Positions 46,377 through 63,663 of a stretch of 64,000 nt of DNA are shown one piece after another (within the stretch, counting starts at the first letter, position 1; every line of letters starts with the position of its first letter). Below the pieces are notes generated by a model. That model had not been told where the DNA came from. It searched no databases and worked only from the letters and a program-made list of their open reading frames with translations. The stretch covers positions 34,381 through 98,380 of the forward strand of contig NZ_JACJQG010000030.1 of NCBI RefSeq assembly GCF_014696435.1, given 5' to 3'. Origin of the DNA: Calothrix anomala FACHB-343. Lineage in GTDB: Bacteria; Cyanobacteriota; Cyanobacteriia; Cyanobacteriales; Nostocaceae. Made by a program: the position numbers and the translations under genes.

Positions 46377-46382
46377 TTAATA

Positions 46383-46533: not shown

Positions 46534-46635
46534 ATATCAGTTAATCACAAGAAAATCTCACAACCAAACATAAAAATTTCTCTTCCCTAATCCCTAGCCC
46601 CTAGCCCCTATTTATTTAAGCCGAGAGTCAATACC

Positions 46636-47421: not shown

Positions 47422-47527
47422 ATATAAATTTTAACTATTTTGACCAAATCAGGCAAAGGTAAAAAGATAATTTTTTACTTTTTACTTCTTACAACCTCAG
47501 TACAAGTATAAATTTTGAATTCCCCAC

Positions 47528-48832
47528 ATGGTGAAATTTAAGCGCAGACAATTTCTCACAACGGCAGGTGCAGCTGTTATCGCTCATAGCTTAAGCAACT
47601 GTAGTAATTTCAGTGTAGCGAAAACGCAATTAAATGCTGGCGTCTATGCAGGCGATCGCGATACGCCCGAAGTAACAACTGCTACACTAGGATTTGTGCC
47701 TGTGACTAGCAGTTGCCCGTTGATTATTGCCAAAGCTAAAGGCTTTTTTGCGAAATATGGTTTACCAGATATTCGCGTTGTTAAACAACCCTCATGGGCG
47801 GTGATGCGCGACAAACTCATGTTAGGTTCAGCAGATGAAGGCTTAGATGGCGGACATCTGCTATTTCCGATGGTTTACCTCATGTCCACTGGGGAAATTA
47901 CTTATAGAAGAAAAATTCCCATGTATATTTTGGCAAGAATGAATCTCAACGGACAAGGAATATCTGTTGCCAACACATATAAAAATTTAAATTTGAGTAC
48001 AGACAGTTCGCCCTTAAAATCAGCTTTCTTACAAAAAGCGAAAGCTGGTGAAACTGTGCGTTGTGCTGTTCCCTATCGCCGGGTGACTGGTGATTTTTTC
48101 ATGCGTTGGTGGTTGGCGCATGGCGGTATCGATCCCGATCGCGATTTATCCATCATTGTCATTGCACCGCCGCAGATGGTTGCAAGTATGCGGAGTGGGA
48201 GTATGGAAGCCTTCTGTGTAGTCGATCCTTGGCACCATCGCCTGATTAAACAAGGATTAGGTTATTCGGCGGTGACAACTGGGGAATTATGGCCGAATCA
48301 CCCAGAAAAAGCCTTTACCATGCGCGCTGAGTGGGTTGATAAATATCCCAAAGCAGCCAAAGCCATGCTAGCGGCATTTTTAGAAGCGCAAATTTGGTGC
48401 GATCGCCCAGAAAATAAAGCAGAATTATTTGATATTGTCTCACAAAGACAATGGATTGGGGTCAAAAGTGAATTGATCCGCGATCGCCTTTTAGGTAAAT
48501 TCGATTATGGCAATGGGCGGGTAGTAGAAAATAGTCCCCATGCGATTAAATACTGGCGAGAAAATGCCTCTTATCCCTTCAAAAGCCACGATTTATGGTT
48601 TTTAATTGAAGATATGCGCTGGGGTTATCGTTCTCCTGATTTTAATACCAAACCCTTAATTGATGCAGTCAATCGTGAGGATTTATGGCGAGAAGCAGCT
48701 AAATTTATCGGTCAAGAATCAGCAATTCCAGCTAGTACATCAAGAGGAATCGAAAAGTTCTTTAACGGCTTAGAATTTGACCCCGAAAATCCCCAAGCGT
48801 ATCTCAATGCACCCAAAATCACGTTGACATAG
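47528..48832 (+). CDS. CmpA/NrtA-type ABC substrate-binding protein, Tat-exported
   Basis: 434 residues. The N-terminus KFKRRQFLTTAGAAVIAHSL carries a twin-arginine motif, and LSNC at about 22-25 is a possible lipobox, so the mature protein may be a Tat-exported lipoprotein. The body matches the nitrate/bicarbonate-binding family (ATLGFVPVTSSCPLIIAKAK; AHGGIDPDRDLSIIVIAPPQ; MEAFCVVDPWH; RWGYRSPDF). Members bind nitrate, nitrite, bicarbonate or related small anions. The substrate cannot be fixed here, and no nitrate-assimilation gene is nearby. A short GTCAACA array follows the stop. Confidence 0.88.
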   Translation: MVKFKRRQFLTTAGAAVIAHSLSNCSNFSVAKTQLNAGVYAGDRDTPEVTTATLGFVPVTSSCPLIIAKAKGFFAKYGLPDIRVVKQPSWAVMRDKLMLGSADEGLDGGHLLFPMVYLMSTGEITYRRKIPMYILARMNLNGQGISVANTYKNLNLSTDSSPLKSAFLQKAKAGETVRCAVPYRRVTGDFFMRWWLAHGGIDPDRDLSIIVIAPPQMVASMRSGSMEAFCVVDPWHHRLIKQGLGYSAVTTGELWPNHPEKAFTMRAEWVDKYPKAAKAMLAAFLEAQIWCDRPENKAELFDIVSQRQWIGVKSELIRDRLLGKFDYGNGRVVENSPHAIKYWRENASYPFKSHDLWFLIEDMRWGYRSPDFNTKPLIDAVNREDLWREAAKFIGQESAIPASTSRGIEKFFNGLEFDPENPQAYLNAPKITLT

Positions 48833-49317: not shown

Positions 49318-51672
49318 TTACATTGAGAGCCTAAATACCAATACGCTTCCACCACTAAATATAACTCCCAGGATTGATGGAATCAAAGGCAACCATGCTC
49401 CCTGTATTAAAAGTATAAGTGTACAGACTCCGTACAAAACTACTGCTATGGTAACTACGGTGCATATCTGTACTAAGAGCGATCGCACCGGCCAAACAAT
49501 CAAGCCACTGACTAAACACCATCCCCAAATCCAAAGAATATCACCCCAGTAAGGCAAAACCCAAATAATTGGCCGTCGATCCAACACAGCACTGATGATT
49601 TGGCTAGTCATCTGTGCTTGAATCAACAGTCCTGGAGTTTCTTGATAAGGTTGTTGTCCCACACTATCAGGAGTAGGAAAGCTATCTCTGAGACTTTGAG
49701 CAGTTACGCCAATCAGAATAATTTTATCTTTAACGGCATCAGATTTTACAGCACCACTCAATACATCTTCCACAGTAACTTGTTCAAACTTGGAATTCCG
49801 ATAATTTGTGAGTATTTGAATACCACCTAAATCTACTTTGCCTACTCCTTTTTGATAACCTCCACTACTACCTGCTGCTAATCGCCAGAATGTTTTATTA
49901 TGAGTAGGCGAATGAAAAATCACACCATTATTAGTAAGTTCATATTGAATATTTTCAGAATATAAATAACGGGCAGCTAATTGCAGATTGAGGGAGAAAG
50001 GAGTTGTGCAACGCGAAGAAATTTCCTGTTTCACCATTAAGATTTGACGCCGAATAATACCATCTGGATCGCGGATGGCATCAGTAAAACCTTGACGATC
50101 GACGGGAACACCTATAGGAGGTTTAATACCTTGAGGATCGTGTTCGCTATCTTTGCCTTTGCAGACAGCAATTACGTTTTCTTGATTTAACTGTGCAGTT
50201 AGTGGTAACTGTTTTAATTTTTCTTGAAAGTCGGGGATATCTCGATAGATGTCTATACCAATAACTCGCGGTTGATATGTTTGTAATTTCTCAAGTAATT
50301 TAGCTAATTTCTGATCGGATATAGATTTTAGTCCGCGTCTCAGTTCTGATAAGTTTTGAATGTCTTTTTCTGTAACTTCAACCACCAGCAATCTGGAATC
50401 TTGTTCTTCTTGAGGACGCAAGCGGATGATGTGGTCAAAAGCTTGTAGTTCCTGTGTTTGAAATACTCCTAAAAATCGTAAACCAATGATGGATAAAGTA
50501 GCTATTGCAGTACTCAAAAGTATAGTTGCTATTGATTGTCTAATCCCAAGATTTGAGTGGATAGAATCATGGGAATTACCACATAATTCTGACCAAGTTA
50601 TCGGAACTGTTGTCGGATTTTGGCAGATAACAGGTAACCAACTGGCGCAAGGAAAATCATTTTCCCATCCCTGAAGTCTTTCTCGTGCTTCCCGTACTGC
50701 TGTATAAAAAAGCTTATCTCCCGCAAAAGCGACAAGAAAGTTTTTGAGAAACTCCTGGGCTACTAAATCTGGTACCGGTTCGCGCATGACAATCATTTGG
50801 GGAATGTTTAAATCGGCTAAATCCCTTGCCAAACCCGTGCTATCACAGGAGTTGAAAATTGCCAATTGTAAACCGCGGGCGATCGCATTTTGTAGGGCAT
50901 TCTTAAGTTGGGGAATAGTTAAGCTTTCAGTTTGGTTGAGATAAATTTTTCCGGTGTCCTCATCAGCCTGGCTTGAACTGTGTCCAGCAAAAAACAAGAT
51001 ATCCCAATCCTGATTCCACAAATATCGGTCAACTTGTCTCCGGGTTGGTTCCACAAGAAACTCAATCTCGGCAGATTGTAACCCCTTGAGCAAAGTGCGG
51101 TCTTTATCAATATCAATTCCTTCACTGTTACCCAAGATAGCAAGGATTTTTACCTTACCGATGGGCTTTCTCTTTTCGTTGTGTGGGGGTTCATACTCGT
51201 GGGAACTTAATGCTACTTCTGCTTGACGATAATCATCAAAAAAGTTCCAAAGATGCCAGGGAAGTCGCTGAAGTAAGGGAATATTTGTTTCAAAAATTAC
51301 TCTAATTGTATCATTTCTGTTGAGTAGAGTTCTTAACTGTTGGACTATATTTTGAAATGGTTCTGAGTTCAACCACCTATTTATAGAGTTTTTTAATTGT
51401 TGGCAGACTTCACCAAATTCACTCACAGAGATATTCGTGACATCTTGTGCATGAATTTTAATGCGTAAACGCGACCCCAAACGTTGATGGAGTGCCTCAT
51501 AAAGTAGCTGCCAGCGATGATATAGTTCGCTTAGTTCTGGTGCTGGTGGTAGAGTCCCTGTCAGTTTCATCGGATATTGTCGATTACTGTCCCAAACTTG
51601 AGCAGTCACCGCAGAAAATCCTTGATGCAAATCACCTGATAAGAAGCTGAAGACGACTAGTTTGTTCATCAC
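49318..51672 (-). CDS. CHAT-CHASE2 membrane protein (caspase-like protease plus sensor)
   Basis: 784 residues. Residues ~130-365 form a CHAT domain of the caspase/separase clan, with the His-Cys dyad His231 in FFAGHSSS and Cys276 in IFNSCDSTG. A membrane helix (about 376-397) leads to a CHASE2 domain (about 400-690; LLVVEVTEKDIQNL, RVIGIDIYRDIPDF, DKIILIGVTAQSLRDSF). Three helices end the chain (about 695-784). CHASE2 is normally an extracytoplasmic sensor, so the CHAT part should be cytosolic: a transmembrane, possibly signal-controlled protease. It lies 16 bp behind the DUF1822 gene and is the last gene of the sigma-DUF1822-CHAT operon. Confidence 0.9.
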   Translation of the reverse strand: MMNKLVVFSFLSGDLHQGFSAVTAQVWDSNRQYPMKLTGTLPPAPELSELYHRWQLLYEALHQRLGSRLRIKIHAQDVTNISVSEFGEVCQQLKNSINRWLNSEPFQNIVQQLRTLLNRNDTIRVIFETNIPLLQRLPWHLWNFFDDYRQAEVALSSHEYEPPHNEKRKPIGKVKILAILGNSEGIDIDKDRTLLKGLQSAEIEFLVEPTRRQVDRYLWNQDWDILFFAGHSSSQADEDTGKIYLNQTESLTIPQLKNALQNAIARGLQLAIFNSCDSTGLARDLADLNIPQMIVMREPVPDLVAQEFLKNFLVAFAGDKLFYTAVREARERLQGWENDFPCASWLPVICQNPTTVPITWSELCGNSHDSIHSNLGIRQSIATILLSTAIATLSIIGLRFLGVFQTQELQAFDHIIRLRPQEEQDSRLLVVEVTEKDIQNLSELRRGLKSISDQKLAKLLEKLQTYQPRVIGIDIYRDIPDFQEKLKQLPLTAQLNQENVIAVCKGKDSEHDPQGIKPPIGVPVDRQGFTDAIRDPDGIIRRQILMVKQEISSRCTTPFSLNLQLAARYLYSENIQYELTNNGVIFHSPTHNKTFWRLAAGSSGGYQKGVGKVDLGGIQILTNYRNSKFEQVTVEDVLSGAVKSDAVKDKIILIGVTAQSLRDSFPTPDSVGQQPYQETPGLLIQAQMTSQIISAVLDRRPIIWVLPYWGDILWIWGWCLVSGLIVWPVRSLLVQICTVVTIAVVLYGVCTLILLIQGAWLPLIPSILGVIFSGGSVLVFRLSM

Positions 51673-51688
51673 CGTCTTTGTTTAATGA

Positions 51689-52882
51689 CTAAAATATAAA
51701 ATTTTCTCTGATTTGAAAGTTATTTAATCCTACTTGAATGCAAAAGTTTTCTCCCGATTCCACATCAAAACGTGGCAGTTGTACAAAGTTATCCTGGCTT
51801 CTAGCTTCCACCTCCTGAAGCATATCTCCAGATTCCGAAAGTAAAGCTAATTTAATATTTTCTGGTAAATAGAATTCCCCAGCAGTCGGATGTAATTGCA
51901 CTCGCACGCTTATTTGTCTATCTACCTCAGGTATGAGAGCAACGAGTAAAACTACAGTTTTGGAATCTAATTGCATTCCCAAATCAATCAACTTGGCTCG
52001 CTTGGTTGCAACTTCTCCCAAACCATAGCCACTCCTCAATCCTAAAGCCATACTGCTACCGTTTGTACCAAAAAATATTTCTAAAGCCTCCCAGCCTGAT
52101 GAAAACAATCCTTCTAACCACTGACTAAGATTAACTTTTATTTTGCCTTGGCGGTAATTGTACAATTGCTGTCGCCAATGTTCTTGCTCTAGTAACGCTC
52201 CCCAAATTGTCAATGGTAATTCCAGCCGGGAAAATTTTGCACTAGGGTTACCCAACCGTTGTAAAAGGTTTTCTGCTTGGGTTGCTGTTAATTCTGGTAA
52301 GGATGCGTTGGCGTAGCCTGCCGCAGGCATCGCTGCTTGGGTTTCTTCTTCTCGACAAAATTGGTAAGTTAAAAAGAAGGCATTAATATCTTTGGTAATA
52401 TGTTGTATTGGCAAGCAGTAGGTGCGGTCAATGGAGTCATAATTTGCAAGTGATTTCAATTCCTTATGGGTGGTGTAACCCCAAACTCGCACCCAATCCT
52501 CATCTGGTTTGACTTGCACTGCTAAATAATAATCTGCTGCCCAACTCTGAATATCCACCCATTCTTGGGGAATTTCTAACTCTCGAGAGTCAATTGCTTC
52601 GCTGGGAATTAACACTACCTTCTTACCACCGAAGGAAATCGCCGTTCCGTTGACAAACTCCCAAAAACTTGGCATATCTGCACTGCTATACCAAATCTCG
52701 GCATCAGGAAAATACTCTTGTTTTACCCAGTCTAAAAACACATCCAAACAAATTTGATTGATATAGGCACACCAACGACTGCTAGGATTTGCATAAATTT
52801 GGCTATTTTGCCAAGACTGCGATCGCAATAATGGCGATACTTCTAATAATAATTCCGTTGGTTCCGTAAACATACTTATCAT
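51689..52882 (-). CDS. DUF1822 family protein
   Basis: 397 residues from ATG 52882, chosen because GAGGT lies eight bases upstream; the frame also allows a start at 52927, which would overlap the sigma-like gene. No membrane segment. Conserved features include SRWCAYINQICLDVFLDWVK near the start and WVDIQSWAADYYLAVQVKPD in the middle. DUF1822 proteins are cyanobacterial, of unknown function, and often sit beside CHAT/CHASE2 and sigma-like genes as here. An in-frame small dispersed repeat (52302-52333) encodes AAMPAAGYANAS in the middle of the protein. Confidence 0.82.
   Translation of the reverse strand: MISMFTEPTELLLEVSPLLRSQSWQNSQIYANPSSRWCAYINQICLDVFLDWVKQEYFPDAEIWYSSADMPSFWEFVNGTAISFGGKKVVLIPSEAIDSRELEIPQEWVDIQSWAADYYLAVQVKPDEDWVRVWGYTTHKELKSLANYDSIDRTYCLPIQHITKDINAFFLTYQFCREEETQAAMPAAGYANASLPELTATQAENLLQRLGNPSAKFSRLELPLTIWGALLEQEHWRQQLYNYRQGKIKVNLSQWLEGLFSSGWEALEIFFGTNGSSMALGLRSGYGLGEVATKRAKLIDLGMQLDSKTVVLLVALIPEVDRQISVRVQLHPTAGEFYLPENIKLALLSESGDMLQEVEARSQDNFVQLPRFDVESGENFCIQVGLNNFQIRENFIF
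52302..52333. repeat. Small dispersed palindromic repeat inside a coding region
   Basis: GATGC (52302-52306) faces GCATC (52327-52331) around GTTGGCGTAG and GCCTGCCGCAGGC. It resembles the GCGTTGGCGTAGCCTGCCGC-type repeats known from Nostoc genomes and is carried in frame by the DUF1822 gene. Confidence 0.65.
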
Positions 52883-52892
52883 TTTTGATACC

Positions 52893-54122
52893 TCATACGG
52901 TTGAAGCCTTAAAGCTAGATTTTGCATAATAAATTCTCAACCATTCTTCCAAAGCTGCACTCATATCTTTTATTTGGTTGGAACTTACGGAAATATTCTG
53001 TGCTTTTTGACTCCAATCAATCAAGGCCTTGAGTAATGATTCTCTACCTTTGAGTAACCGACGGGAAACTGTAGGCTGGCTGATTTTTAACTCTTGGATA
53101 ATCTGTTGCTGTGTCATGCCTTGTTGATAATAGAGTTCGAGTATCCTCTGAGATTGAGAATCCAGTCCTTCTAAGGCTGACAGCAGGACATCATTCATTT
53201 GCGAGATTTGATTGCGGCGGTTTTGAGCTTCTTCTTGGGCAAGAATATCAGCTAGCAATGATTCAGAAGTTGGATCTTTGATGTCAAACTCCGAATTTGA
53301 ATCTTCGTCTTGATTATATACGTATAAAGAACTAACACTAGGGTAAAGATAATTACGTACATAAATAGTAGTTTTGTTCAGCCATTCCGCAATCATTTCC
53401 CAGTTGCATTCTGCGGTGGGGAAAGTTAGCTGGCTGAGTCTTTCGCTATTGTAGAGATGCGCAATATTTTCCCATAGTTGACGATTTGGTTGGGGCAGTT
53501 TTTGTATTCCTCCCGGTTGATTTTGCAGATATAGCATCCGGAAGCAAGTCCAAGCTAGGCGATATTGGGCGACTTGTGTGGGGGATAATCCAGCATTTTG
53601 CAGCGCCTCTAGCACTACTTTTTTACTCACCTTGCGTAAAAGTCCCCAGTTTGTGCAAATATCCGCTTCCTTGCGTTGGCGCAGCAGATCCTTCAATCTG
53701 CTGGGAAAGGCTATGGTGGCATAGGTTTTCAAAGCCGTGGATTTGTCTGGGTTATACCCTTGTAAGATAGTTTCTAACTCTGCAATGCCCATTTGGAAAT
53801 AATCAGCTAATCCATACTGAAAAACAGCAAATTTAGCGATCGCTTTTTCGGCTGCCCAATAACAAGTTTCCTGCAAATAAGCTGATAAATGTGCTTTTGC
53901 CAGATTACTTAAATGAGAGTTTGAACGCCATATTTTATACCAATAAAACGCCCAAAAATTTTCTGTAAACTTATTTGCCTGGTCTTGATTATTAGCGATC
54001 TCTGCCAAATTATTTTGCATACTCCGGCGCAACTTAACTTCTGTTAGCCATTTGCTAAATCTATCTGCTTCTAGTTGGGCAAAGGTAGAGAATATTTCAA
54101 TAATTTCTAAACGAGGACGCAT
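52893..54122 (-). CDS. Sigma-70-like transcription factor
   Basis: 409 residues. The C-terminal third contains a sigma region-4 helix-turn-helix: LDSQSQRILELYYQQGMTQQ, then IIQELKISQPTVSRRLLKGR (about 325-365). The middle (YFQMGIAELETILQGYNPDK; IAFPSRLKDLLRQRKEADIC; SKKVVLEALQNAGLS) resembles a divergent region 2-3. It is longer and more divergent than typical group 3/4 sigma factors. It heads a minus-strand operon with DUF1822 and CHAT-CHASE2 genes, so it may set expression of this cluster or respond to the CHAT protease. That link is inferred. Confidence 0.82.
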   Translation of the reverse strand: MRPRLEIIEIFSTFAQLEADRFSKWLTEVKLRRSMQNNLAEIANNQDQANKFTENFWAFYWYKIWRSNSHLSNLAKAHLSAYLQETCYWAAEKAIAKFAVFQYGLADYFQMGIAELETILQGYNPDKSTALKTYATIAFPSRLKDLLRQRKEADICTNWGLLRKVSKKVVLEALQNAGLSPTQVAQYRLAWTCFRMLYLQNQPGGIQKLPQPNRQLWENIAHLYNSERLSQLTFPTAECNWEMIAEWLNKTTIYVRNYLYPSVSSLYVYNQDEDSNSEFDIKDPTSESLLADILAQEEAQNRRNQISQMNDVLLSALEGLDSQSQRILELYYQQGMTQQQIIQELKISQPTVSRRLLKGRESLLKALIDWSQKAQNISVSSNQIKDMSAALEEWLRIYYAKSSFKASTV

Positions 54123-54146
54123 AGGCTAGTTATAGTCTGATATCTT

Positions 54147-54406
54147 TTAACAGATTTGGTAAATGGATTCTGCCTTATAGCGCCCTTTTGCGCTCATATT
54201 TTCAACGCAGGTAATGGCACTAGTTAATTCTTTCATCCCTTTACGGATAGTATCTCGATTCCATCCTAATTCCGAGGGGAGCAAGTCTGTGTCCATCTAA
54301 ACCAAAACCTTGGACTGTTGATGCTATAAAGAAAGCCTATTGCAGCACCTTTTAATTGAAATGCTATTTGTTTCAATAGTTGTTTTAGGGAAGAAGTTAA
54401 TACCAT
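54147..54406 (-). pseudogene. Probable transposase N-terminal remnant
   Basis: On the minus strand, one short frame begins MVLTSSLKQLLKQIAFQLKG and another reads LGWNRDTIRKGMKELTSAIT then CVENMSAKGRYKAES. Together they resemble the N-terminal region of a cyanobacterial transposase type in which an LGW-RDTIRKG-KEL segment is followed by C-DN-S-RGRK. The frames are offset, so it is broken. Family assignment is uncertain. The rest of the 54407-54846 spacer contains a HIP1-like site and should hold promoters for the divergent genes. Confidence 0.45.
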
Positions 54407-54846
54407 AGACACCTCTGCTGCACCCAAAAATTCAATCATTATTACTGAATTTACTACAAAAAGGAGGGGAAAAAGCGACTGCCACTTTCTCCCCGGTTAT
54501 AATAATTATCATTATCCTAAAGAAGATGTTTTATTTTTTGGCAGTCCCTCACAAGCAATCTGCTGTATTTTCTGAGATATTCCTTTGCGATCGCTAAATA
54601 CTGGAGTTACTAGCATTAGAGCTACCCATTATCCTAGACCTAGCTTGCTCTCATTTTCTTGAACTTCTGCCTAGCAGCACTAGTTATCGGCTTTTCTCAA
54701 AAAATTCCTCGTTCAGTATTTTTGAGTGAATAAACCATAAAAGGCCAACTAATAAAACAACAGAGGGAAGCAGATACAGTAATTCTGCATCCTTTCAATT
54801 CTTTTTTCCAACATAGTCAATTTATTACATCAACAAAGAGAAACTT

Positions 54847-55782
54847 ATGCCTTACCGTATTGATGGCACACCAAATGTGTTTACCTTGACTAATGGCAAT
54901 GACACTTTTGATGGTTATATAGGAGTCGATGTAATCGATGGTAAAGGAGGAAACGATTACATCTTTGGCGGTGATATGCCTGATCAGCTGACAGGCGGAG
55001 CTGGTAACGATACCCTTGATGGAGGTAATGGTTACGATACTGTTGTTGAACAAGGCAATTTTAACTTTGTCCTTACCAATACCAGACTGACTGGAAACGG
55101 AACTGATACCTTGATTAGTATTGAAGATGCAGTTTTGGCTGGTGGTGATGGTAATAATATTCTTAATGCCTCTGCTTTCTCAGGTGGTGTTTCGCTTTTT
55201 GGTTTTGCTGGAAATGATTATCTTTATGGGGGTAGCTCAAACGATTGGCTATTTGGGGACGTGGGCAATGATACAATGTCCGGCGGGAATGGTAATGATT
55301 TTCTAGATGCTAGTGCGGGAAATGATCTCCTATATGGTGGTGCGGAAAGTGATGATCTATTTGGTGGCGATGGAAATGATCTCCTATATGGTGGTACGGA
55401 AAGTGATGAACTATATGGTGGCGATGGAAATGATTACCTTGTAGGCTATGGATCTTCATCTGTGTATCAAATCGATACTTTGAAGGGAGGAACTGGTGCA
55501 GATAAGTTTGTCCTTGGTGACGCTTCCAGTTCTCCGTATACTAATGGGACAATAATTTTGGGTAGTGACGCCAACAAAGCGATTATTCAGGATTTCAGTG
55601 CTGTTGAGGGTGACAAGATTCAAGTTTATCGTGGTGGCAGCTACAATTTATATCAAAATAGAGACCTTGGCTACGGCTCTTCTAGCGCATTTGATACAGC
55701 AATCTATGACCGTGGCAACTTAATTGCGATCGTTCAGGATACTGTTGGATTGACTCTTGCTTCCAACTTCATCTTGGTCTAA
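54847..55782 (+). CDS. RTX-type calcium-binding repeat protein
   Basis: 311 residues with many GGxGxDxLx nonapeptide repeats between about residues 30 and 205 (GGAGNDTLDGG, GGNGNDFLD, YGGDGNDYL). They fold as a parallel beta-roll that binds Ca2+ in each turn. The last ~100 residues are non-repetitive (FVLGDASSSPYTNGT; IIQDFSAVEGDKIQVY), a common tail in such cyanobacterial proteins. There is no N-terminal signal; RTX proteins usually leave by type I secretion through a C-terminal signal. It lies 43 bp upstream of the TPS exoprotein gene, same strand. Confidence 0.9.
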   Translation: MPYRIDGTPNVFTLTNGNDTFDGYIGVDVIDGKGGNDYIFGGDMPDQLTGGAGNDTLDGGNGYDTVVEQGNFNFVLTNTRLTGNGTDTLISIEDAVLAGGDGNNILNASAFSGGVSLFGFAGNDYLYGGSSNDWLFGDVGNDTMSGGNGNDFLDASAGNDLLYGGAESDDLFGGDGNDLLYGGTESDELYGGDGNDYLVGYGSSSVYQIDTLKGGTGADKFVLGDASSSPYTNGTIILGSDANKAIIQDFSAVEGDKIQVYRGGSYNLYQNRDLGYGSSSAFDTAIYDRGNLIAIVQDTVGLTLASNFILV

Positions 55783-55825
55783 ATTGATCGGCTTTTCTAT
55801 GGACTATTCAACTTATGATTAAATA

Positions 55826-58800
55826 TTGACAGATTGCCATTGCCAAAAAATTGCCAGCTGCGTGAAAAACCAATCAGTTCCAATTCAAACCGGTTCTTCT
55901 ACAAAACTTTCCAAGAAAGTTAGTTCAATAACTCAACTGCTAAGACAACCCAGTTGGCAAACTAAGCTAGTCAGTGCTTTTGTTCTTAGTGGAGCAATAT
56001 TTACTTTCTCTAACATGTGTGCGCTGGCTCAAAATATTACCCTTGACGGTACGCTGGCTCCTCAAGAGACTTTGACAGGCCCAAATTATCTCATTCCGCA
56101 ACGAGCGGGACGAACTGTTGGCAATAATCTTTTTCAAAGTTTTGGCAAGTTCAACTTAGATACAGGCGAAGTGGCTAAGTTTGAGAGTTCTGCCAGTATC
56201 AGAAATATTTTGGCTCGTGTCACAGGTGGTAGTCTTTCTTCGATTAATGGTTTGATTCAAATTCAAGGCAGTAATGCCAACCTGTTCCTGCTTAACCCAA
56301 ATGGTATTATCTTCGGGCCCAATGCTCAACTAGACATTCGGGGTTCTTTTCTGGCTAGCACCGCCAATAGTTTTGTCTTCCAAAATGGTAGTGAATTTAG
56401 TGCCATTCATCCGCAACCACCCGACTTGCTGGCAATTAATGTGCCGATTGGCTTGCAATATGGAGGACAACAACCAGGGGCAATTAGGCTTGAGGGATCT
56501 CTAGCTGTTGATCCAGCAAAAACCATTACTCTTGTGGGAGGCCCAATCACTATACAAGGTCAGTCTAATCCAGATAATCCAGACTTTAGATCTTTAAAAG
56601 CGCTGGGAGGACAGATTAATCTGGGCGGAGTTTTAGGTGCAGGGATAGTTGGGCTGAATGGGGATGGAAATCTGTTGAGCTTGAATTTTCCAGAGAATAT
56701 AGCACGAAGTGATATATCTCTTGTAAACAGTGCTTTATCAGTCAAAGGAAACGATCGCGGAGGTGTTGAAATTTATGCCCGGAACTTGCAAGTTTCATCG
56801 ACGACTATTGATGCTGGCATTGGTGCAGGTTTAGGTTCAACTGCGAGTCAAGCAGGAGACATTAATCTTAATACAACTGAGACAACTACCATAGGGCCAT
56901 TGGCTAACATTGGAAATTCTGTTTATTTTGGGGCGACTGGAGATGGTGGCAACATTAAGGTAGAAACTGGATCGCTTTTCTTAACTGATGGTGGTAGCAT
57001 CGGCACATTTACAGATGGAAACGGAAATGCAGGGAGTATCAAAATAAATGCTCGTAACACCGTAATTATTGACGGCGTATCCCTTTTCACATTTGTCGAT
57101 CCTGACCCTGACATTGGTCTTCAAAACATAATTGTTTTTAGCACAGTATACAGTTATTCAGGAGAAGAGGGCAGAGGTGGGAATATTGACATTACCGCCA
57201 GATCGCTAAAAGTTAGTGGCGGAGGTACAGTGGAGTCCAGCGCCAACAGAAGAGATGGGGGCAAGATAACAATCAATGTTAATGATGCTGTGGTTATTGA
57301 CAATGCAGGCGCTGACTCTACTATCCCTGTCTATGCAAGAGGAACAAGTTCTATACTAAGCTATACGGCATGGCAGAGGGAAGGCAGAGGAGGAGATATT
57401 GATATTAATGCAGGGTCACTTTTAATCAGTAATGGCGCTCAGTTATTTGCTAACAAAAGAGGGCAGGGTGATGGCGGCAATGTCAACATTACAACTAGAT
57501 CGCTCACTCTCTCCAATGGAGGTGTACTGTCTGCTAGAGCAGAGTATGGTCAAGGAAATGCAGGTACAATAAGCATTAATGCTGATGATACAGTCAGTAT
57601 TAATGGCATAGGCAGCGAGAACAAGCTGAGTGGCATCTTTAATAATATACTTCGTGAGTCTGAAGGCAAAGCTGGTGGTATCAACATAACAACTGGTTCA
57701 CTTTTTCTGGCTGACGGTGCTTTCCTATCTTCTAGGACGTTTGGACAAGGAGATGCAGGAAACATAACAATCAATGCACGAGATAATGTTTTGTTGACAG
57801 GGAGGATAATTGAAGGTGTCCTTCGTTCCAGTGCAATTATCAGTGAGGTAAAACAAACAGGCAATGGACGAGGTGGAGATATCTCGATTACAACTGGGTC
57901 ATTTTTCCTCAGTGAGGGTGCTAGCATAGGCTCTGCAACTTTAGGGCAAGGAGACGCAGGCAATATTACTATCAATGCCCGTGATACCATTTCTTTAATT
58001 GGCCGAATGGATATCTTTGGGCAGACAGGAAACTATATTGCTAGCAACGTTGAAACTAGTGGTACAGGAAAGGGCGGAAACCTGCAAATTGCCACTGGCT
58101 CACTGTTTTTGAGCAATGGGACTGAACTGCAAGCCCTAACACGCGGCAACGGAGATGCTGGAAATATCACCATTAATGCTCGTGATGCAGTCGTCATAGA
58201 CGGAGTTGGAGTCAGTGGATTTTCTAGCGGGTTATTTACCAGTGCAGAACTTGGGGCGTTAGGTCAAGGACGCGCTATTACTGTAAATACGCCTTTATTG
58301 CGGCTGAGTAATGGCGGTGTGATTAATGCCCGCACACTCAACAATAAACCCGGAGGCAACATCACCATTAATGCTGACACCTTTGAAGCAATAAATGGTG
58401 GACAGGTAATCACGACTACCTATGATAGTGGACAAGCAGGTAATATCATCCTTAACGTCACTGACAAAATTACTTTATCTGGCAGCGATCCGACCTATAA
58501 AAACCGAATTTTTCAATTTGCTCAAGGCAATCCGGACAATACAGGCGCAGCTAGTGGGCTTTATGCTAACACAACCCCTGGATCAACAGGAAATGCTGGT
58601 AGTATTTTTATTGACCCCAGAACCGTCCTTGTTCAGGATGGAGCAATAATTGCTGTAAATAGTCAGGGTAGTGGTCAAGGAGGCGATATTGACATTCGGG
58701 CAGGAAAATTGACACTGGATAATCAAAGTCTGATCTCAGCAGAAACAGCAAGCAATCAGGGTGGTAACATCAACTTCAACAGCAATTTACTATTGCTGCG

Positions 58801-59497
58801 TCGTGGCGCTCAAATTTCTACCAACGCAGGTACTGAGCAACAAGGCGGTGATGGCGGCAACATCAATATCAACTCAAAATTTCTTGTCGCTGCACCCAAT
58901 GAAAATAGCGATATTACTGCCAATGCATTCAACGGTGCTGGCGGCAAAATCCAAATTAACGCGACTAATATCTTTGGCATCGCACCACTTAGCCGACAAG
59001 ATCTAGAAAGATTGCGTCCACTGGATTTAGACCCATATCAACTGCCAAGCAATGACATCACCGCCGTTTCTCAAGCAAACCCTTCTTTAAGCGGCACTAT
59101 ACAAATTAACACCCCAGATGCTGATCCCAGTCGCGGTTTAGTACAACTATCTACTAATGTCGTCGATGTTTCTGGGCAAATTGCCAACGGTTGCACCCCT
59201 GGTAGTCGGCAAAGTCAGAGTTCCTTTACCGCTACTGGAAGGGGGGGATTGCCAATCAGCCCCAATCAACCATTACAAGATGTCAGTATGTTGTCAGAGT
59301 GGGTGAGAGTAACACAAAAGCCTGCAACTTCTAACCAAGTGCAAGTCACGCCAATATTAGCCAAGTCTGCTACGCAAATTGTCGAAGCTCAAGGGTGGGT
59401 GGTTGATGGTAATGGTGATATTAAGCTGGTTGCCTATTCCCCGCAAGTAAATCTGCGTAGTTCTTGGCAAGCATCTGTGTCCTGTCCAACATTTTAG
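55826..59497 (+). CDS. Two-partner secretion exoprotein (filamentous haemagglutinin-type TpsA)
   Basis: 1223 residues from TTG 55826; GTG at 55862 is an equal candidate, as neither has a clear ribosome site. A long charged lead precedes a hydrophobic stretch (about 48-63) with a likely signal cleavage near CALA (about 68). The TPS domain follows (about 70-250) with NPNGIIFG at 157-164. Hundreds of residues of beta-helix repeats come next, of the type GNAGxIxINAxDxVxIxG and GGxIxIxTGSLxLxNG. The C-terminal region ends VDVSGQIANGC and a short tail of the type seen in cyanobacterial TpsA proteins. It would pass the outer membrane through a TpsB pore, not present in this window. Likely a surface adhesin or secreted fibre. 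Confidence 0.9.
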   Translation: MTDCHCQKIASCVKNQSVPIQTGSSTKLSKKVSSITQLLRQPSWQTKLVSAFVLSGAIFTFSNMCALAQNITLDGTLAPQETLTGPNYLIPQRAGRTVGNNLFQSFGKFNLDTGEVAKFESSASIRNILARVTGGSLSSINGLIQIQGSNANLFLLNPNGIIFGPNAQLDIRGSFLASTANSFVFQNGSEFSAIHPQPPDLLAINVPIGLQYGGQQPGAIRLEGSLAVDPAKTITLVGGPITIQGQSNPDNPDFRSLKALGGQINLGGVLGAGIVGLNGDGNLLSLNFPENIARSDISLVNSALSVKGNDRGGVEIYARNLQVSSTTIDAGIGAGLGSTASQAGDINLNTTETTTIGPLANIGNSVYFGATGDGGNIKVETGSLFLTDGGSIGTFTDGNGNAGSIKINARNTVIIDGVSLFTFVDPDPDIGLQNIIVFSTVYSYSGEEGRGGNIDITARSLKVSGGGTVESSANRRDGGKITINVNDAVVIDNAGADSTIPVYARGTSSILSYTAWQREGRGGDIDINAGSLLISNGAQLFANKRGQGDGGNVNITTRSLTLSNGGVLSARAEYGQGNAGTISINADDTVSINGIGSENKLSGIFNNILRESEGKAGGINITTGSLFLADGAFLSSRTFGQGDAGNITINARDNVLLTGRIIEGVLRSSAIISEVKQTGNGRGGDISITTGSFFLSEGASIGSATLGQGDAGNITINARDTISLIGRMDIFGQTGNYIASNVETSGTGKGGNLQIATGSLFLSNGTELQALTRGNGDAGNITINARDAVVIDGVGVSGFSSGLFTSAELGALGQGRAITVNTPLLRLSNGGVINARTLNNKPGGNITINADTFEAINGGQVITTTYDSGQAGNIILNVTDKITLSGSDPTYKNRIFQFAQGNPDNTGAASGLYANTTPGSTGNAGSIFIDPRTVLVQDGAIIAVNSQGSGQGGDIDIRAGKLTLDNQSLISAETASNQGGNINFNSNLLLLRRGAQISTNAGTEQQGGDGGNININSKFLVAAPNENSDITANAFNGAGGKIQINATNIFGIAPLSRQDLERLRPLDLDPYQLPSNDITAVSQANPSLSGTIQINTPDADPSRGLVQLSTNVVDVSGQIANGCTPGSRQSQSSFTATGRGGLPISPNQPLQDVSMLSEWVRVTQKPATSNQVQVTPILAKSATQIVEAQGWVVDGNGDIKLVAYSPQVNLRSSWQASVSCPTF

Positions 59498-59809
59498 AAA
59501 ATAGGTACATTCATTCTTTGAATTCAGTCAATAAAACGAGAAAAGCCAACTAATAAATAGGTATCTAGGCTTCAATACTAAATATAGTCATCATCAAAAA
59601 TTTAAGCATTCTTACGCATAAGCGAAAATCCCAAACTAATAAAAGATTATTATTAAATAATAATTAAAAAATCAACTTTTTGAGGATATGTAATTTAACT
59701 TTTTAGATAATTCATTCATCAAGATGAAATACAGCATAATTTAAAAAATATTGCTACCTAAAAATTAGATAAAAAATCATAAATCACTTTTATTGTGATA
59801 ATTATAGCT
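59498..59809. other. AT-rich spacer before DUF928 gene
   Basis: No gene, repeat or hairpin recognised. Very AT-rich; may hold a promoter for the DUF928 gene. Confidence 0.4.
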
Positions 59810-60667
59810 ATGAAATCATCGTTTAAATCAATAAAATGGATATTGCCGACTGTGCTGATATTGAGCAATGTAATTCAATATCCAGTATTGGTTAAAGCCC
59901 AAACTCAATTACCAAGCTCTTCTCCAAAACCAGCATCGTCTAATAAACCAGTTTCTCCTCCAAAAAATCAATCTCGACCTATTTTCCGTTGGACAAAACC
60001 CCCAGCCGGACTCAGCACTATATCAGGACGCAGTATTGGCATGGGAAGCCGGAATTTGTGTCCCTATGTACAGATACCTTTAATGGCTTTAGTACCATTT
60101 AAAGAACGTGACTCAGCCAAAAATTCTGGTGATAAATCAGTTTCGACAATCTCAATGGATGTGTGGGGATTAACTACAGATGAACGTCCAAGTTTTTGGT
60201 TTTACGTTCCTTATACAAAAGAGATTGCTAATGCAAGTGCGGAGTTTGTCTTGCAGGATAGTCAAGAAAATGAAGTTTATAAAAATGCTGTATCTCTAAG
60301 AGCAAAACCAGGAGTGATAAATGTTGAATTACCATCAACAACTCTACCATTAGAAGTAGGTAAAACCTATCGTTGGTTTTTCAAGGTCAATTGTAGCGGA
60401 CAAGATAGTGCTAGCATTCCAATTTATGTTGAAGGTGATGTACAGCGAATCAATTTGGACTCTAGTTTGGCAAACCAAATAGCGACAGCACAACCGCAAG
60501 ATAAGATTGCTATTTATGCTGCAAATGGCATTTGGTTTGATGCTTTAAATTTACTAGCACAATTGCGTAAAGCTAATCCTAATAATGCATCTTTAGAAAG
60601 CGATTGGCAAAGTTTGCTGGAGTCTATTAAATTGGGAAACATTGCCAAAGCTCCCTTGGAGGAATAG
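59810..60667 (+). CDS. DUF928 family exported protein
   Basis: 285 residues from ATG 59810 (a GTG five codons upstream is possible). Signal peptide MKSSFKSIKWILPTVLILSN with cleavage likely after VKA (about 33-35). A Pro/Ser-rich linker leads into the DUF928 region: NLCPYVQIPLMALVP, TTDERPSFWFYVPY, LPLEVGKTYRWFFKVNC and a helical C-terminal part (AANGIWFDALNLLAQLRKAN). DUF928 proteins are cyanobacterial, exported and of unknown function. They are commonly encoded with CHAT-TPR and TPS exoprotein genes, as here. Confidence 0.85.
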   Translation: MKSSFKSIKWILPTVLILSNVIQYPVLVKAQTQLPSSSPKPASSNKPVSPPKNQSRPIFRWTKPPAGLSTISGRSIGMGSRNLCPYVQIPLMALVPFKERDSAKNSGDKSVSTISMDVWGLTTDERPSFWFYVPYTKEIANASAEFVLQDSQENEVYKNAVSLRAKPGVINVELPSTTLPLEVGKTYRWFFKVNCSGQDSASIPIYVEGDVQRINLDSSLANQIATAQPQDKIAIYAANGIWFDALNLLAQLRKANPNNASLESDWQSLLESIKLGNIAKAPLEE

Positions 60668-60831
60668 GGAATATGGTGAGGCGACTATCAAATTCTGCTC
60701 GCTCAGTGATTGGCTATTTTTTTATTTGGAAGTCTCTTAGGTATCAAGTAAAAATAAGTAGTGCTTTCGCGTAGCGTGTCCAAAGGACAAACATCTTGCT
60801 CGCGCGGGCACGATGCCCGCACTACAAATAT

Positions 60832-60926
60832 TACAGCAATTTTCAGGTAAATAGACCACACTGTAGGGGCACGGCATCGACAATCTTCTCGTATATACAA
60901 TAATCTTACTGGTGCCGTGCCCCTAC
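60832..60926. repeat. TTACAGC inverted-repeat family, partial copy
   Basis: ATTACAGCAATTTTCAGGTA and AATAGACCAC, then GTAGGGGCACGGCAtcGACAATCTTCTCGTA and GGTGCCGTGCCCCTAC. It matches the 40251-40376 element over most of its length. The 60668-61020 spacer also has a GCGTAGCGTGTCCAAAGGAC small repeat near 60768 and a decayed CTTCGCGCACTTCGCGTC phrase near 60947. Confidence 0.65.
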
Positions 60927-61020
60927 TACTACTTTTCTCTTCCTTCGCGCACTTCGCGTCTTCGTGGTTCGTTTTTTACCCAGCAAAATTAATGGGACAG
61001 ACCACTAGATTTGGAACAGC

Positions 61021-63663
61021 TTATAACCAATTACCCACAAGCACATAAGGTGCCCATTGGGCAGGACGACTGTAATTATCACTCTTTAACATTTTAATTT
61101 GCGCCTGACGTAGTGCTTCTGATTTTGTCGTTTTACCAGTAGTTAATTGGCTGTAAAATTCGCTGATAAAGAAAGCTGTTGAATCATCATTAATATTCCA
61201 TAATGAAGCTAATGTACTTCGCGCACCAGCTTTAATAGCAACTCCGGCTAAACCTAATGTGGCGCGGTTGTCTCCAGATGCGGTTTCACATGCACTTAAA
61301 ACTAGCAATTCCACAGGTTCGCTACGTTTTTCACTTCTACTCTTGAGCAATGTATCAAGTTCACCAACATAAATGCGTTTGTCGTAAGCCAAAATAAAAG
61401 TTTCTGTGGCTTTTGAACTAAATTTTCCATGTGTTGCTAAATGAACAATTCTGTAAGGTTGTTCGTTAATTGTTTTTTCTAAAATTGTGCTGATAAATTG
61501 ATCGTTTAGTAGTGTAGTAGTCCTAACGCCTAATTTCTGAATTTTATTTAGTTCATTTTTAACGTTAGGCAGGGGTGCAAATTTCTCATTTTTGGGGATT
61601 TCGGAAAGTCCTCCAGCCAGGGCATTAAAGTTAGTTTTTGTTAATGGTTGGGGTGTAAAGAGTTGCAATCCAGGGCTAAGAGCGAGGGCATATTTTTCGA
61701 TTAAATATTCTTTACCGTCATACAATACAGCCATTGGAATATTTCGCAAAAGTCCATCGGGAATAAAAACTAGTGTATTGACACCACTAGTTTTTAACTC
61801 ATCGGCAATTGGTTGAATTAGCCAGTTATAAAGTTGCTCTGAAAGTTCCTTAACTTTCTTAGTTTTTTCAGGTTGAACAATATCTTTTCTTAATTGCATG
61901 ACAACTTGTTCAACTTGCTGGCGGCTCACTACATTATTTTTATATATCAGAGGTTTGTTAGGAAGTTTGAGGATAACAGCTAACTGGTTTTCGAGAATAA
62001 TGGGATAAAAGATAGCAGTATGAGGATTATCTTGATCTACTACTCGATCGAGAACCACAAATTGGTTATTTAAGCAAGCTTCTCGAAAGAAATTGTCTAA
62101 TTCGGCTAGTTGTAGAGTTTCAATGCGCTTGCGGGCTTTATCTAAGTCTGGTTTGTTTTCTCCCTTTTCTTGTAAAAGCAATTCCACTGACTGACGGTAA
62201 ATAGGTTCGACGCGATCGCGAAAATTAAATTGTACGTCGCGGTTAACTGCAACTAAGTCACTACGCAGAGATTGCAGGGTGGCAACTGCTGCATCGTAGA
62301 ATGCGATCGCAGCTGTTATATCCCCCTTGGCTCTCAACAACCTTCCTAATTGCCATTGCCAAAGGTAAGCTATATCAGAAGCATCTATTTCTTGCGCAAT
62401 CAATAATGCTTTCTGGGTCAATTTTTGGGCTTCATTCCACTGCTGAGTTTGTTCGTATACTTCCCCTAAACTGCCCAGCGCGTAGGATTCTGCTTGCCTA
62501 TCTCCCAGAGTTTGCGCTTGCTGTACAGTTTTTGCGAGTATCTGGGCAATGTCTTGATTGCCACCAAGATTTTTAATAGTCCGAGCAAAATGTATACTGG
62601 CATATAAACTTGAATGATTAAGTGGTAAATTAGCCAGTTGCGATCGGATAATGGGAACAAGTACTTTGGCATCTGCGGTTTTTTCGGTTTCCAGCAGCAG
62701 ACTCAGTTGATTGATTTGGGCTTGGATTTTGGTAAAGGGGGTAGGTGCAACTTCAGCAGCTTTTTGGTAATGAGCGATCGCGCTAGCAAAATCACCTGCG
62801 GCTCTTTTGGTGTTACCTAAGCTAAATTCTCCAATACTGATATCTTGGGGTAATTTGAGGTTTTGGGCGATATTGATACTTTGTTGGAGAACTTGCTGAG
62901 ATTGCTCAAAATCACCCGCTAGTTGCAGTGCATTTCCTAGCGATCGCAAACCAGCGACTTTCATCGGTGAGTCGGGTTGGGTTTGCAACTGTTTGTTAAC
63001 CGCTTGCAGTGTATCTAATGCACGGCGGTAGAAGCCAGAAACCCTTAAGGCTTGAGCTTGGTTGATGCGGCTGTATGTTACTCTATCTCCATTTCCTAGT
63101 TGCTGCCAAAGTTTCTCCGCTCTTTGGGAAGTAGTTAAAGATACTTCTGACTGTCCCACGGATAGTTGCAGTCCCGCCTGAATGTCAAAGGTTTGCGCCA
63201 GAACTTCCAAAGGTTCTGAGTTTTGATGATTAACTTTTAACTTTTGATCTTTTACATCCCAACCAAGTAAGTTTAAGCTGGTATTAATAGCATTTTCAGC
63301 TTCCTGCAACAAGCCTAATTGCTGATATACCAAAGCCAGATTGCTCAAAGCTGCGGCTTGGTAAATATTGTCCTTTTGCAGCTTATAGGTGCGAACAGCT
63401 GCTTGTAGTACTATCACTGCTTGAGAAAAGTTCCCTGATTGATAAAGCTGTTCACCTTTTTCAATCAGCTTTTCTGGATTTGGCGCAAATTGAACATTTG
63501 GGATTTTAGTTGCTGGTTGGTTGGCAAAGGTAATGGGAAGAGAAGTCAGGTAAAAAGCGAGGGTGAATAGGAGTATGGAATTTACTACAACCTGTTTTCG
63601 ACGCAGGAAGTTTTGTAAATTAAAGTGAAGGCTATATTTTTTAGTAAATAATTTTTTTGTCAT
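61021..63663 (-). CDS. Exported TPR-CHAT protein (caspase-like)
   Basis: 880 residues. An N-terminal hydrophobic segment (about 25-46) with possible cleavage near TFANQ suggests export or a membrane anchor. TPR helices fill about 60-490 (EKGEQLYQSGNFSQAVIVLQ; ALSNLALVYQQLGLLQEAEN; SLGEVYEQTQQWNEAQKLTQ). A CHAT domain ends the protein (about 590-880), with His745 in VHLATHGKFS and Cys792 in LVLSACETASGD, so the protease dyad is intact. The final AQWAPYVLVGNW is typical of the domain. It converges with the DUF928 gene. Its likely site, periplasmic or membrane-attached, would let it act on envelope or secreted proteins. Confidence 0.92.
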   Translation of the reverse strand: MTKKLFTKKYSLHFNLQNFLRRKQVVVNSILLFTLAFYLTSLPITFANQPATKIPNVQFAPNPEKLIEKGEQLYQSGNFSQAVIVLQAAVRTYKLQKDNIYQAAALSNLALVYQQLGLLQEAENAINTSLNLLGWDVKDQKLKVNHQNSEPLEVLAQTFDIQAGLQLSVGQSEVSLTTSQRAEKLWQQLGNGDRVTYSRINQAQALRVSGFYRRALDTLQAVNKQLQTQPDSPMKVAGLRSLGNALQLAGDFEQSQQVLQQSINIAQNLKLPQDISIGEFSLGNTKRAAGDFASAIAHYQKAAEVAPTPFTKIQAQINQLSLLLETEKTADAKVLVPIIRSQLANLPLNHSSLYASIHFARTIKNLGGNQDIAQILAKTVQQAQTLGDRQAESYALGSLGEVYEQTQQWNEAQKLTQKALLIAQEIDASDIAYLWQWQLGRLLRAKGDITAAIAFYDAAVATLQSLRSDLVAVNRDVQFNFRDRVEPIYRQSVELLLQEKGENKPDLDKARKRIETLQLAELDNFFREACLNNQFVVLDRVVDQDNPHTAIFYPIILENQLAVILKLPNKPLIYKNNVVSRQQVEQVVMQLRKDIVQPEKTKKVKELSEQLYNWLIQPIADELKTSGVNTLVFIPDGLLRNIPMAVLYDGKEYLIEKYALALSPGLQLFTPQPLTKTNFNALAGGLSEIPKNEKFAPLPNVKNELNKIQKLGVRTTTLLNDQFISTILEKTINEQPYRIVHLATHGKFSSKATETFILAYDKRIYVGELDTLLKSRSEKRSEPVELLVLSACETASGDNRATLGLAGVAIKAGARSTLASLWNINDDSTAFFISEFYSQLTTGKTTKSEALRQAQIKMLKSDNYSRPAQWAPYVLVGNWL

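What the first reader, a model, noticed from the sequence alone, without database searches (positions are those of the whole stretch)
49318..63663. CHAT-protease, sigma factor and secreted-adhesin cluster as a candidate envelope signalling system
Seen: a minus-strand operon (sigma-like factor, DUF1822 and CHAT-CHASE2; 11 and 16 bp gaps), opposite a plus-strand set (RTX protein, TPS exoprotein, DUF928), closed by a convergent exported TPR-CHAT gene. Both CHAT domains keep their His-Cys dyads (His231/Cys276 and His745/Cys792). Known: CHAT domains belong to the caspase/separase clan; CHASE2 is an extracytoplasmic sensor; DUF1822 and DUF928 have no assigned function. Inferred: the membrane protein could turn an outside signal into proteolysis in the cytosol, with DUF1822 or the sigma-like factor as target. 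The exported CHAT protein could process or guard the secreted adhesin. Two proteases on opposite sides of the membrane beside a transcription factor is an architecture I do not know to be characterised.
Basis: partly seen in the sequence, partly recalled or inferred. Interest (0 to 1): 0.82.

Follow-up and report, generated by a model that had tools for sequence, protein, structure and literature searches.

The report
Candidate protease-gated sigma-factor cassette
In a cyanobacterium, a membrane sensor carrying a caspase-like protease sits in one operon with a gene-switching factor and a third protein that carries one strikingly conserved, possibly cuttable arginine, which suggests how an outside signal could be turned into new gene expression.

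Summary
The genes are as described. The minus-strand operon (sigma, DUF1822, CHAT-CHASE2) is not a new kind: it fits a predicted EACC2-caspase/ECF-sigma/DUF1822 system in print (eLife 2021), and a protease-CHASE2 topology was proposed in 2012. It recurs widely with CHAT dyads intact (69/69, 15/15, 30/30).

New here: (1) DUF1822 has a hypervariable linker with one near-invariant arginine (window Arg298): 139/146 homologues, 27/29 in a second sample. I read it as the candidate cut site. (2) Loci lacking CHAT often carry a C14 caspase (28/54 versus 4/48). The residue before the arginine follows protease type (large in 69/72 sigma+CHAT, 0/29 sigma+C14), but the DUF1822 tree holds only three switches. 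(3) DUF1822 residues 151-204 and 236-262 track the presence of sigma.

The secreted arm (TPS, DUF928) is linked above chance but loosely; the full seven-gene set occurs only in the window (1 of 48 CHAT loci). Best model: CHAT cuts DUF1822 and frees sigma. Cleavage, binding and regulon are inferred.

The parts
52893..54122 (-). Sigma factor (409 aa): sigma region 2 about 53-150, an unusual helical middle, sigma region 4 about 302-367
51689..52927 (-). DUF1822 protein (likely start Met16, base 52882): N-terminal alpha/beta part 26-175, helical 181-294, C-terminal beta-sandwich 306-412; candidate gate or inhibitor of sigma
   Evidence: Pfam 4e-103; model pLDDT 83.5; no strong PDB match
52034..52036 (-). 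Codon of DUF1822 Arg298, candidate scissile residue in a hypervariable linker with pLDDT under 50 at 297-304
   Evidence: R in 139 of 146, 27 of 29 in a second set; 136 of 137 linkers of up to 45 residues hold an R, about 38 expected without
52142..52477 (-). DUF1822 residues 151-262, candidate sigma-binding segment
   Evidence: blocks 151-180, 181-204 and 236-262 filled in 150-152 of 152 sigma-linked DUF1822 but in 3-4 of 23 without sigma nearby; block 205-235 does not discriminate
49318..51672 (-). Membrane protein: N-terminal alpha/beta module (EACC2-like), CHAT protease predicted cytosolic (His231 at 50980-50982, Cys276 at 50845-50847), one TM, CHASE2 sensor, three TM
54847..55782 (+). RTX calcium-binding repeat protein, divergent from sigma
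   Evidence: Pfam 5e-30; divergent RTX beside sigma also in L079, L087, L088, L092, L093 and L130
55826..59497 (+). TPS (two-partner secretion) exoprotein
   Evidence: Pfam 5e-51
59795..60667 (+). DUF928, hydrophobic N-terminal segment, probably exported; downstream of sigma on the same strand in 15 of 46 CHAT-linked loci
   Evidence: Pfam 1e-62
61021..63663 (-). TPR-CHAT protein with hydrophobic N-terminal signal-like segment (His745 at 61429-61431, Cys792 at 61288-61290)

Best explanation
The minus-strand operon is a protease-gated sigma switch. Shown: the CHASE2 protein has one TM-like stretch before and three after the sensor domain, so the CHAT protease is predicted to be cytosolic; the genes recur together; the sigma factor has both sigma-2 and sigma-4 parts; DUF1822 carries one near-invariant arginine in a low-confidence linker. 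Inferred: DUF1822 holds the sigma factor through its sigma-associated segment (about 151-262). A signal sensed by CHASE2 activates CHAT, which cuts DUF1822 after Arg298, splitting off its beta-sandwich. The loss of full-length DUF1822 frees sigma. Sigma then switches on surface genes, among them probably the neighbouring RTX/TPS/DUF928 genes. In many relatives the same DUF1822-sigma pair stands beside a C14 caspase instead of CHAT, and the linker residue before the arginine differs accordingly. The exported TPR-CHAT is an accessory of the TPS arm, not of the switch.
For: The cassette sigma>DUF1822>EACC2-CHAT-CHASE2 recurs across many genera; L097 is a one-strand run sigma, DUF1822, CHAT-CHASE2, DUF928, TPS, TPR-CHAT with gaps of 25, 234, 29, 38 and -4 bases. 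Mirror-tree r: sigma-DUF1822 0.86 (n=115), DUF1822-EACC2/CHAT 0.95 (n=53); within this genome sigma-DUF1822 0.78, p=0.0005, 11 pairs. Dyads intact 69/69, 15/15, 30/30. Arg298: 139/146, first or second in isolated conservation in 8 of 9 alignments, an R somewhere in 136/137 linkers, lysine depleted, second set 27/29. P2 large in 69/72 sigma+CHAT and 0/29 sigma+C14 loci. C14 in 28/54 loci lacking CHAT against 4/48 with it, p=1.5e-6. Sigma-linked DUF1822 segments. TPS 20/48 against 5/54 and DUF928 19/48 against 7/54. A CHAT protease cutting an inhibitor of an ECF-like sigma has been shown in the CRISPR-associated Csx29 system (passages of PMC10028731).
Against: No cleavage, binding or transcription data. 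Seven of 146 DUF1822 and 2 of 29 in the second set lack the arginine. The P2 rule has exceptions: 5 of 109 rows with a known protease break it (L041, L044, L105, L123, L203, all CHAT-linked); sigma-less CHAT loci 4 large, 2 small of 6; loci with no protease seen 10 large, 20 small of 30; in the second set, of 17 CHAT-linked with R, 12 large, 3 small, 2 basic (read from the list). On the DUF1822 tree only 3 protease switches exist and the independent-pairs test is not significant (1 same, 0 opposite, 1 no difference). In one alignment of the 37 most diverse rows Arg298 fell to 78% and fifth place. The Fisher tests ignore relatedness; tree-aware tests of TPS, DUF928 and C14 against CHAT were not significant. 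26 of 54 CHAT-less loci show no C14 either. DUF1822 gave no convincing match to Csx30 or an anti-sigma. Some DUF1822-CHAT pairs have no sigma nearby, so sigma cannot be the only output.
Confidence: 0.5

Rival explanations
1. Autoprocessing effector, as proposed in the 2021 paper: the constant caspase/CHAT domain activates the system by cutting its own polypeptide, in a cell-death or immunity response; sigma gives a transcriptional response and DUF1822 is an adaptor.
For: Autopeptidase activation was proposed for this kind of gene set (section 9 of PMC8195603). C-termini are variable between paralogues.
Against: In the CHAT-CHASE2 alignment (29 thinned rows) the six most isolated conserved residues include no basic residue between protease and sensor; they lie within the CHASE2 span. 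DUF1822 does show one.
Confidence: 0.2
2. Arg298 is a binding or docking residue, not a cut site; CHAT acts as a scaffold or on other substrates, and DUF1822 may be an activator of sigma.
For: Conservation alone cannot tell cutting from binding; 30 of 33 loci with no protease seen nearby keep the arginine too.
Against: It lies in a low-confidence, hypervariable linker; lysine is depleted there and the residue after a linker R is S or G in 53%; P2 follows the protease type (with the exceptions told above).
Confidence: 0.15
3. The secreted arm (RTX, TPS, DUF928, TPR-CHAT) has nothing to do with the sigma switch; two multi-copy gene sets happen to lie side by side.
For: The full set is found in 1 of 48 CHAT loci, the window itself; 16 of 48 have none of the four; looser mirror-tree values with the core (TPS 0.43-0.69, TPR-CHAT 0.39-0.53); TPR-CHAT and RTX enrichment not significant; no shared promoter element seen.
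Against: DUF928-DUF1822 7/19 against 0.77 expected in this genome; TPS 20/48 against 5/54; collinear six-gene run in L097; DUF928 directly behind CHAT-CHASE2 in many loci.
Confidence: 0.25

Closest known systems
EACC2-caspase / ECF sigma / DUF1822 neighbourhoods (Kaur et al., eLife 2021, PMC8195603; section 9 read whole)
   Same: Same three genes, including a CHASE2 version; sensing, caspase action and sigma output were already proposed.
   Different: That section names no cut site in these proteins, no DUF928, no TPS partner and no exchange of CHAT for a C14 caspase beside the same sigma-DUF1822 pair. It calls DUF1822 a TPR protein; the model here shows alpha/beta, helical and beta-sandwich parts. 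Of the rest of the paper only passages were seen; its supplements were not seen.
Craspase, type III-E CRISPR: Csx29 TPR-CHAT, Csx30, CASP-sigma (PMC10028731; passages)
   Same: A CHAT protease cuts an inhibitor of an ECF-like sigma and so relieves it.
   Different: Activated by RNA and CRISPR-bound; here the partner is a membrane sensor. No sequence or fold link of DUF1822 to Csx30 was found.
HetF-PatU3 of Anabaena (PMC12288457 section 15 read; primary PNAS paper not held)
   Same: A cyanobacterial protease reported to cut a negative regulator; the window protein hits the HetF model weakly over its CHAT part.
   Different: 15 bits against a cut-off of 1200; HetF acts in cell division and differentiation; no sigma partner mentioned in the section read.
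Metacaspase-CHASE2 of Trichodesmium (PMC3501461, passages)
   Same: Sensor outside, caspase-fold protease inside, one TM before and three after the sensor.
   Different: Metacaspase domain instead of CHAT; no sigma factor in the passages seen.
Nostoc punctiforme CHASE2/DUF928/WD40 gene cluster (PMC5587647, passage)
   Same: CHASE2 and DUF928 genes in one array.
   Different: Found there in one of seven species surveyed; here DUF928 is a frequent neighbour of the cassette (19 of 48 CHAT loci).

Membership tests
EACC2-caspase/sigma/DUF1822 system | caspase-fold protease domain with catalytic dyad | tested here: met
   PF12770 6e-14; dyad 69/69
EACC2-caspase/sigma/DUF1822 system | constant N-terminal EACC2 alpha+beta domain | tested here: inconclusive
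   A conserved N-terminal module of about 190 aa precedes CHAT in the 84 relatives counted (chosen for having both), but no EACC2 family came up in the libraries used; the name rests on the paper's description
EACC2-caspase/sigma/DUF1822 system | variable C-terminus, CHASE2 among them | tested here: met
EACC2-caspase/sigma/DUF1822 system | neighbouring sigma factor and DUF1822 | tested here: met
   DUF1822 near 46 of 46 CHAT-linked sigma loci
Craspase (type III-E CRISPR) | TPR-CHAT bound to Cas7-11 with guide RNA | tested here: inconclusive
   Of the 4 window proteins scanned with PADLOC none hits a type III-E model; no RNA family at gathering score in the window. Cas7-11 and CRISPR arrays were not searched for in the genome
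Craspase (type III-E CRISPR) | Csx30-like inhibitor | tested here: inconclusive
   no convincing match of DUF1822 by sequence or fold
HetF | passes the HetF equivalog model | tested here: not met
   NF045509 15 bits against 1200
ECF sigma factor | passes ECF/sigma-70 family models | tested here: met
   TIGR02937 102.8 bits against 42.9; PF07638 Sigma70_ECF 24.0 against 21.1
ECF sigma factor | regions 2 and 4 with only a short linker between (definition recalled) | tested here: not met
   Region 2 about 53-150 and region 4 about 302-367, so about 150 residues between them and 409 aa in all; works like a sigma, class left open
Two-partner secretion | TPS signal domain | tested here: met
   PF05860 174.6 bits against 33.5
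Two-partner secretion | TpsB/ShlB gene beside tpsA | tested here: not met
   13 ShlB matches in the genome, none on contig C69; a TpsB acting in trans is possible

The most novel reading that the evidence does not exclude
DUF1822 is a general cleavable latch of cyanobacterial signalling: one conserved arginine in a disposable linker is cut by whichever clan CD protease the locus carries (CHAT or C14 caspase), the residue before it is retuned when the protease is exchanged, and in its sigma-linked form the cut releases a sigma factor that drives secreted adhesins. It would be a caspase-to-sigma pathway, present in several parallel copies per genome, with a membrane sensor or a STAND-WD40 receptor as input.
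Probability: 0.4. Interest if true: 0.82.

Novelty: new variant of a known kind. Interest (0 to 1): 0.66.

Why it matters
This genome alone has 93 CHAT matches, and to my knowledge (recalled) hardly any substrate of cyanobacterial caspase-like proteases is known. A single, conserved, protease-matched candidate cut site turns a neighbourhood prediction into a one-residue experiment. It would place caspase-fold proteases in everyday transcriptional signalling at the envelope, next to the CRISPR-bound Craspase case.

Tried and rejected
Promoter search: the upstream 260 bases of sigma in 34 sequences (window included) gave no element that I could see conserved (every second row was printed). The sigma-RTX intergenic region against Nostoc sp. 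106C is conserved only on the RTX side, about 290 bases. No motif-discovery program was run. So the regulon is not shown.

Phylogenetic tests: on the sigma tree of 89 rows the CHAT label changes at least 9 times and C14 14 times (rows with neither included), but independent-pairs tests of DUF928, C14, RTX (and of TPS, whose printout was largely cut) against CHAT did not reach significance and were underpowered. The same holds for P2 against protease type. The Fisher values and the Mantel values ignore relatedness.

HetF membership rejected. RNA families and tRNAs: none in the window.

Sampling limits: 144 sigma rows, of which 42 with under 6 kb flank on either side were dropped. 80 of 257 relatives were kept by the scan, biased to close ones. 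L078 and L166 are the same contig and are counted twice. Nine of 146 DUF1822 with linkers over 45 aa were left out, and the linker limits there come from the alignment. Loci labelled 'none' had no protease found within 8-10 kb, which does not mean none in the genome. CHAT ORFs with under 180 aligned residues were left out of the TPR/TPS-CHAT dyad count. Arginine specificity of metacaspases and separase is recalled, from no call.

Full report
What is there. The seven ORFs are real, at the stated coordinates and strands, with the stated domains. The window is part of contig C69 of a 9.24 Mb genome. The closest relative by sigma factor among the named loci kept is Nostoc sp. 106C, 85% identical (very near genomes may be left out there). 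CHAT domains are extremely frequent in this genome (93 matches), as are DUF1822 (20), DUF928 (19, one under the cut-off) and TPS (30), so co-location had to be tested.

The core cassette. I fetched 19 neighbourhoods of DUF1822 genes in this genome, 52 from other genomes of the class anchored on the sigma factor, and 80 named loci by a genome scan. The order sigma, DUF1822, EACC2-CHAT-CHASE2 recurs throughout. Pairwise distances of the proteins agree closely: sigma-DUF1822 r=0.86 over 115 cassettes, DUF1822-EACC2/CHAT 0.95 over 53, and within this genome alone sigma-DUF1822 0.78 over 11 pairs, p=0.0005. The catalytic pair is intact in 69 of 69 CHAT-CHASE2, 15 of 15 other EACC2-CHAT and 30 of 30 TPR- or TPS-linked CHAT domains counted.

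Is it known? Largely yes. Section 9 of PMC8195603, read whole, describes EACC2-caspase proteins with CHASE2 and other C-termini, in most TRADD-N-free cases beside an ECF sigma factor and DUF1822, and proposes sensing, caspase action and a sigma output. PMC3501461 (passages) described a metacaspase-CHASE2 protein with the same one-plus-three TM pattern that the window protein shows by hydropathy. DUF1822 occurs in 2 papers and DUF928 in 1 of the library searched; 'CHAT domain' together with 'two-partner secretion' in none, and with 'hemagglutin' and 'cyanobacteri' in none. The library holds open-licence papers only.

DUF1822 and its arginine. The model (pLDDT 83.5) has an N-terminal alpha/beta part, a helical part and a C-terminal beta-sandwich; residues 297-304 have pLDDT under 50. 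In 146 DUF1822 proteins the linker around them is hypervariable except for one residue, Arg298: R in 139, K in 3. By protease context: 72 of 74 sigma+CHAT, 29 of 30 sigma+C14, 30 of 33 sigma with no protease seen, 6 of 7 CHAT and 2 of 2 C14 without sigma. Across nine alignments it is first or second in isolated conservation in eight and fifth in one, where it fell to 78% (start methionines compete for the top). Counting R anywhere in the linker, 136 of 137 linkers of up to 45 residues hold one where about 38 would lack one by composition, 88 hold exactly one, lysine is depleted (0.7% against 2.0%), and the residue after a linker R is S or G in 53%. In 29 DUF1822 proteins gathered afterwards, mostly from new genomes, R is kept in 27. 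The same scan of sigma and of CHAT-CHASE2 gave no comparable linker residue among its top six. I read this as a cut site for an arginine-specific clan CD protease; that metacaspases and separase cut after arginine is recalled, not from a call.

Exchange of the protease. Of 102 sigma loci with at least 6 kb on both sides (42 of 144 dropped), 48 have EACC2-CHAT within 10 kb and 54 do not. Of the 54, 28 carry a C14 caspase gene in the locus, against 4 of the 48 (p=1.5e-6). The five C14 candidates given to Pfam and one more were confirmed. Two large relatives have an nSTAND1-WD40 C-terminus. The residue before the arginine is large and hydrophobic in 69 of 72 sigma+CHAT cases and in 0 of 29 sigma+C14 cases, where it is A, T or S; it is large in 4 of 6 sigma-less CHAT cases and in 10 of 30 cases with no protease seen. 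This is what a retuned cut site would look like, but 5 of 109 rows break the rule and the DUF1822 tree has only three protease switches: one pair agrees, none opposes, one is neutral. L091 and L092, CHAT loci nested among C14 loci, follow the rule with Met; L123, a CHAT locus beside C14 loci, does not. In the second set the rule is looser: of 17 CHAT-linked proteins with R, 12 large, 3 small, 2 basic (list).

Sigma-linked segment. DUF1822 residues 151-204 and 236-262 are filled in 150-152 of 152 sigma-linked proteins and in 3-4 of 23 without sigma nearby; 205-235 does not discriminate. This points to about 151-262 as the sigma-binding part, by inference. DUF1822-CHAT pairs without sigma also exist, so DUF1822 may be a more general partner of these proteases.

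The secreted arm. In this genome DUF928 lies within 10 kb of 7 of 19 DUF1822 places (0.77 expected), TPS of 5 of 19 (1.19 expected), and TPS of 9 of 19 DUF928 places (1.19 expected). Among the sigma loci, TPS is near 20 of 48 with CHAT against 5 of 54 without, DUF928 19 of 48 against 7 of 54; thinned to under 60% identity, TPS is 6 of 16 against 2 of 28, p=0.019, and DUF928 10 of 16 against 4 of 28, p=0.002. TPR-CHAT and RTX are not significantly enriched, and 16 of 48 CHAT loci have none of the four partners. L097 holds sigma, DUF1822, CHAT-CHASE2, DUF928, TPS and TPR-CHAT in one direction, the last two overlapping by 4 bases (the TPR-CHAT gene runs off the stretch, its CHAT start is seen). 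TPS and CHAT are fused in one polypeptide in four proteins. Yet the whole seven-gene set is found only in the window, the nearest relative L130 shows no DUF928 or TPR-CHAT in its 20.5 kb, and distance agreement of TPS and TPR-CHAT with the core is lower (0.39-0.69). The arm is thus a frequent but exchangeable partner, plausibly part of the regulon; no promoter element was seen.

Mechanism, with status. Sensor outside and protease inside: predicted from TM pattern. Cut at Arg298: inferred from conservation. Release of sigma: inferred by analogy with Csx29-Csx30-CASP-sigma (passages of PMC10028731), which would work alike but is not shown to be the same family. Regulation of surface genes: inferred from neighbourhood. 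My confidence in the cut-and-release model is about one half.

Verdict. A new variant of a predicted system, with a specific, testable cut site that the printed section I read does not contain.

Noticed in passing
L032:5142-10601, L034:1450-7857, L196:2856-8060, L201:11159-14608: TPS secretion domain and a C-terminal CHAT domain fused in one large polypeptide with intact dyad: probably secreted exoproteins that carry a caspase-like domain. L201 is cut by the contig end.
   Followed up: partly
L036:7821-9350, L042:13294-14892: Sigma proteins of 509 and 532 aa with a second, C-terminal match to the sigma model, as if its end were duplicated.
   Followed up: no
L177, L172, L180, L170, L194, L195, L200, L205: Proteins of about 1740-1830 aa with a C14-caspase start stand beside the sigma-DUF1822 pair in loci without CHAT (C14 confirmed by Pfam for L177, L172 and L170). 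Two relatives elsewhere (L113, L118) end in nSTAND1-WD40.
   Followed up: partly
window 45555-48832: Three plus-strand genes left of the cluster read like an ABC transporter of the nitrate/taurine type (permease, ATPase, binding protein); by eye from the translations.
   Followed up: no
L087:9405-15600 and the matching part of L093: Two genes of about 617 and 509 aa lie between sigma and DUF1822 in two genomes, breaking an otherwise near-constant gene pair.
   Followed up: no
L106:12100-15400: The CHAT-CHASE2 gene is split into two ORFs (229 and 506 aa) and DUF928 into two; looks like decay or assembly error. Left as it stands.
   Followed up: no
window 54557-54846 and L130: About 290 bases upstream of the RTX gene are highly similar to Nostoc sp. 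106C while the sigma-side half of the intergenic region is not.
   Followed up: partly
G000, whole genome: 93 CHAT matches in 9.24 Mb; 13 ShlB (TpsB) matches, none on the contig of the window's TPS gene.
   Followed up: no
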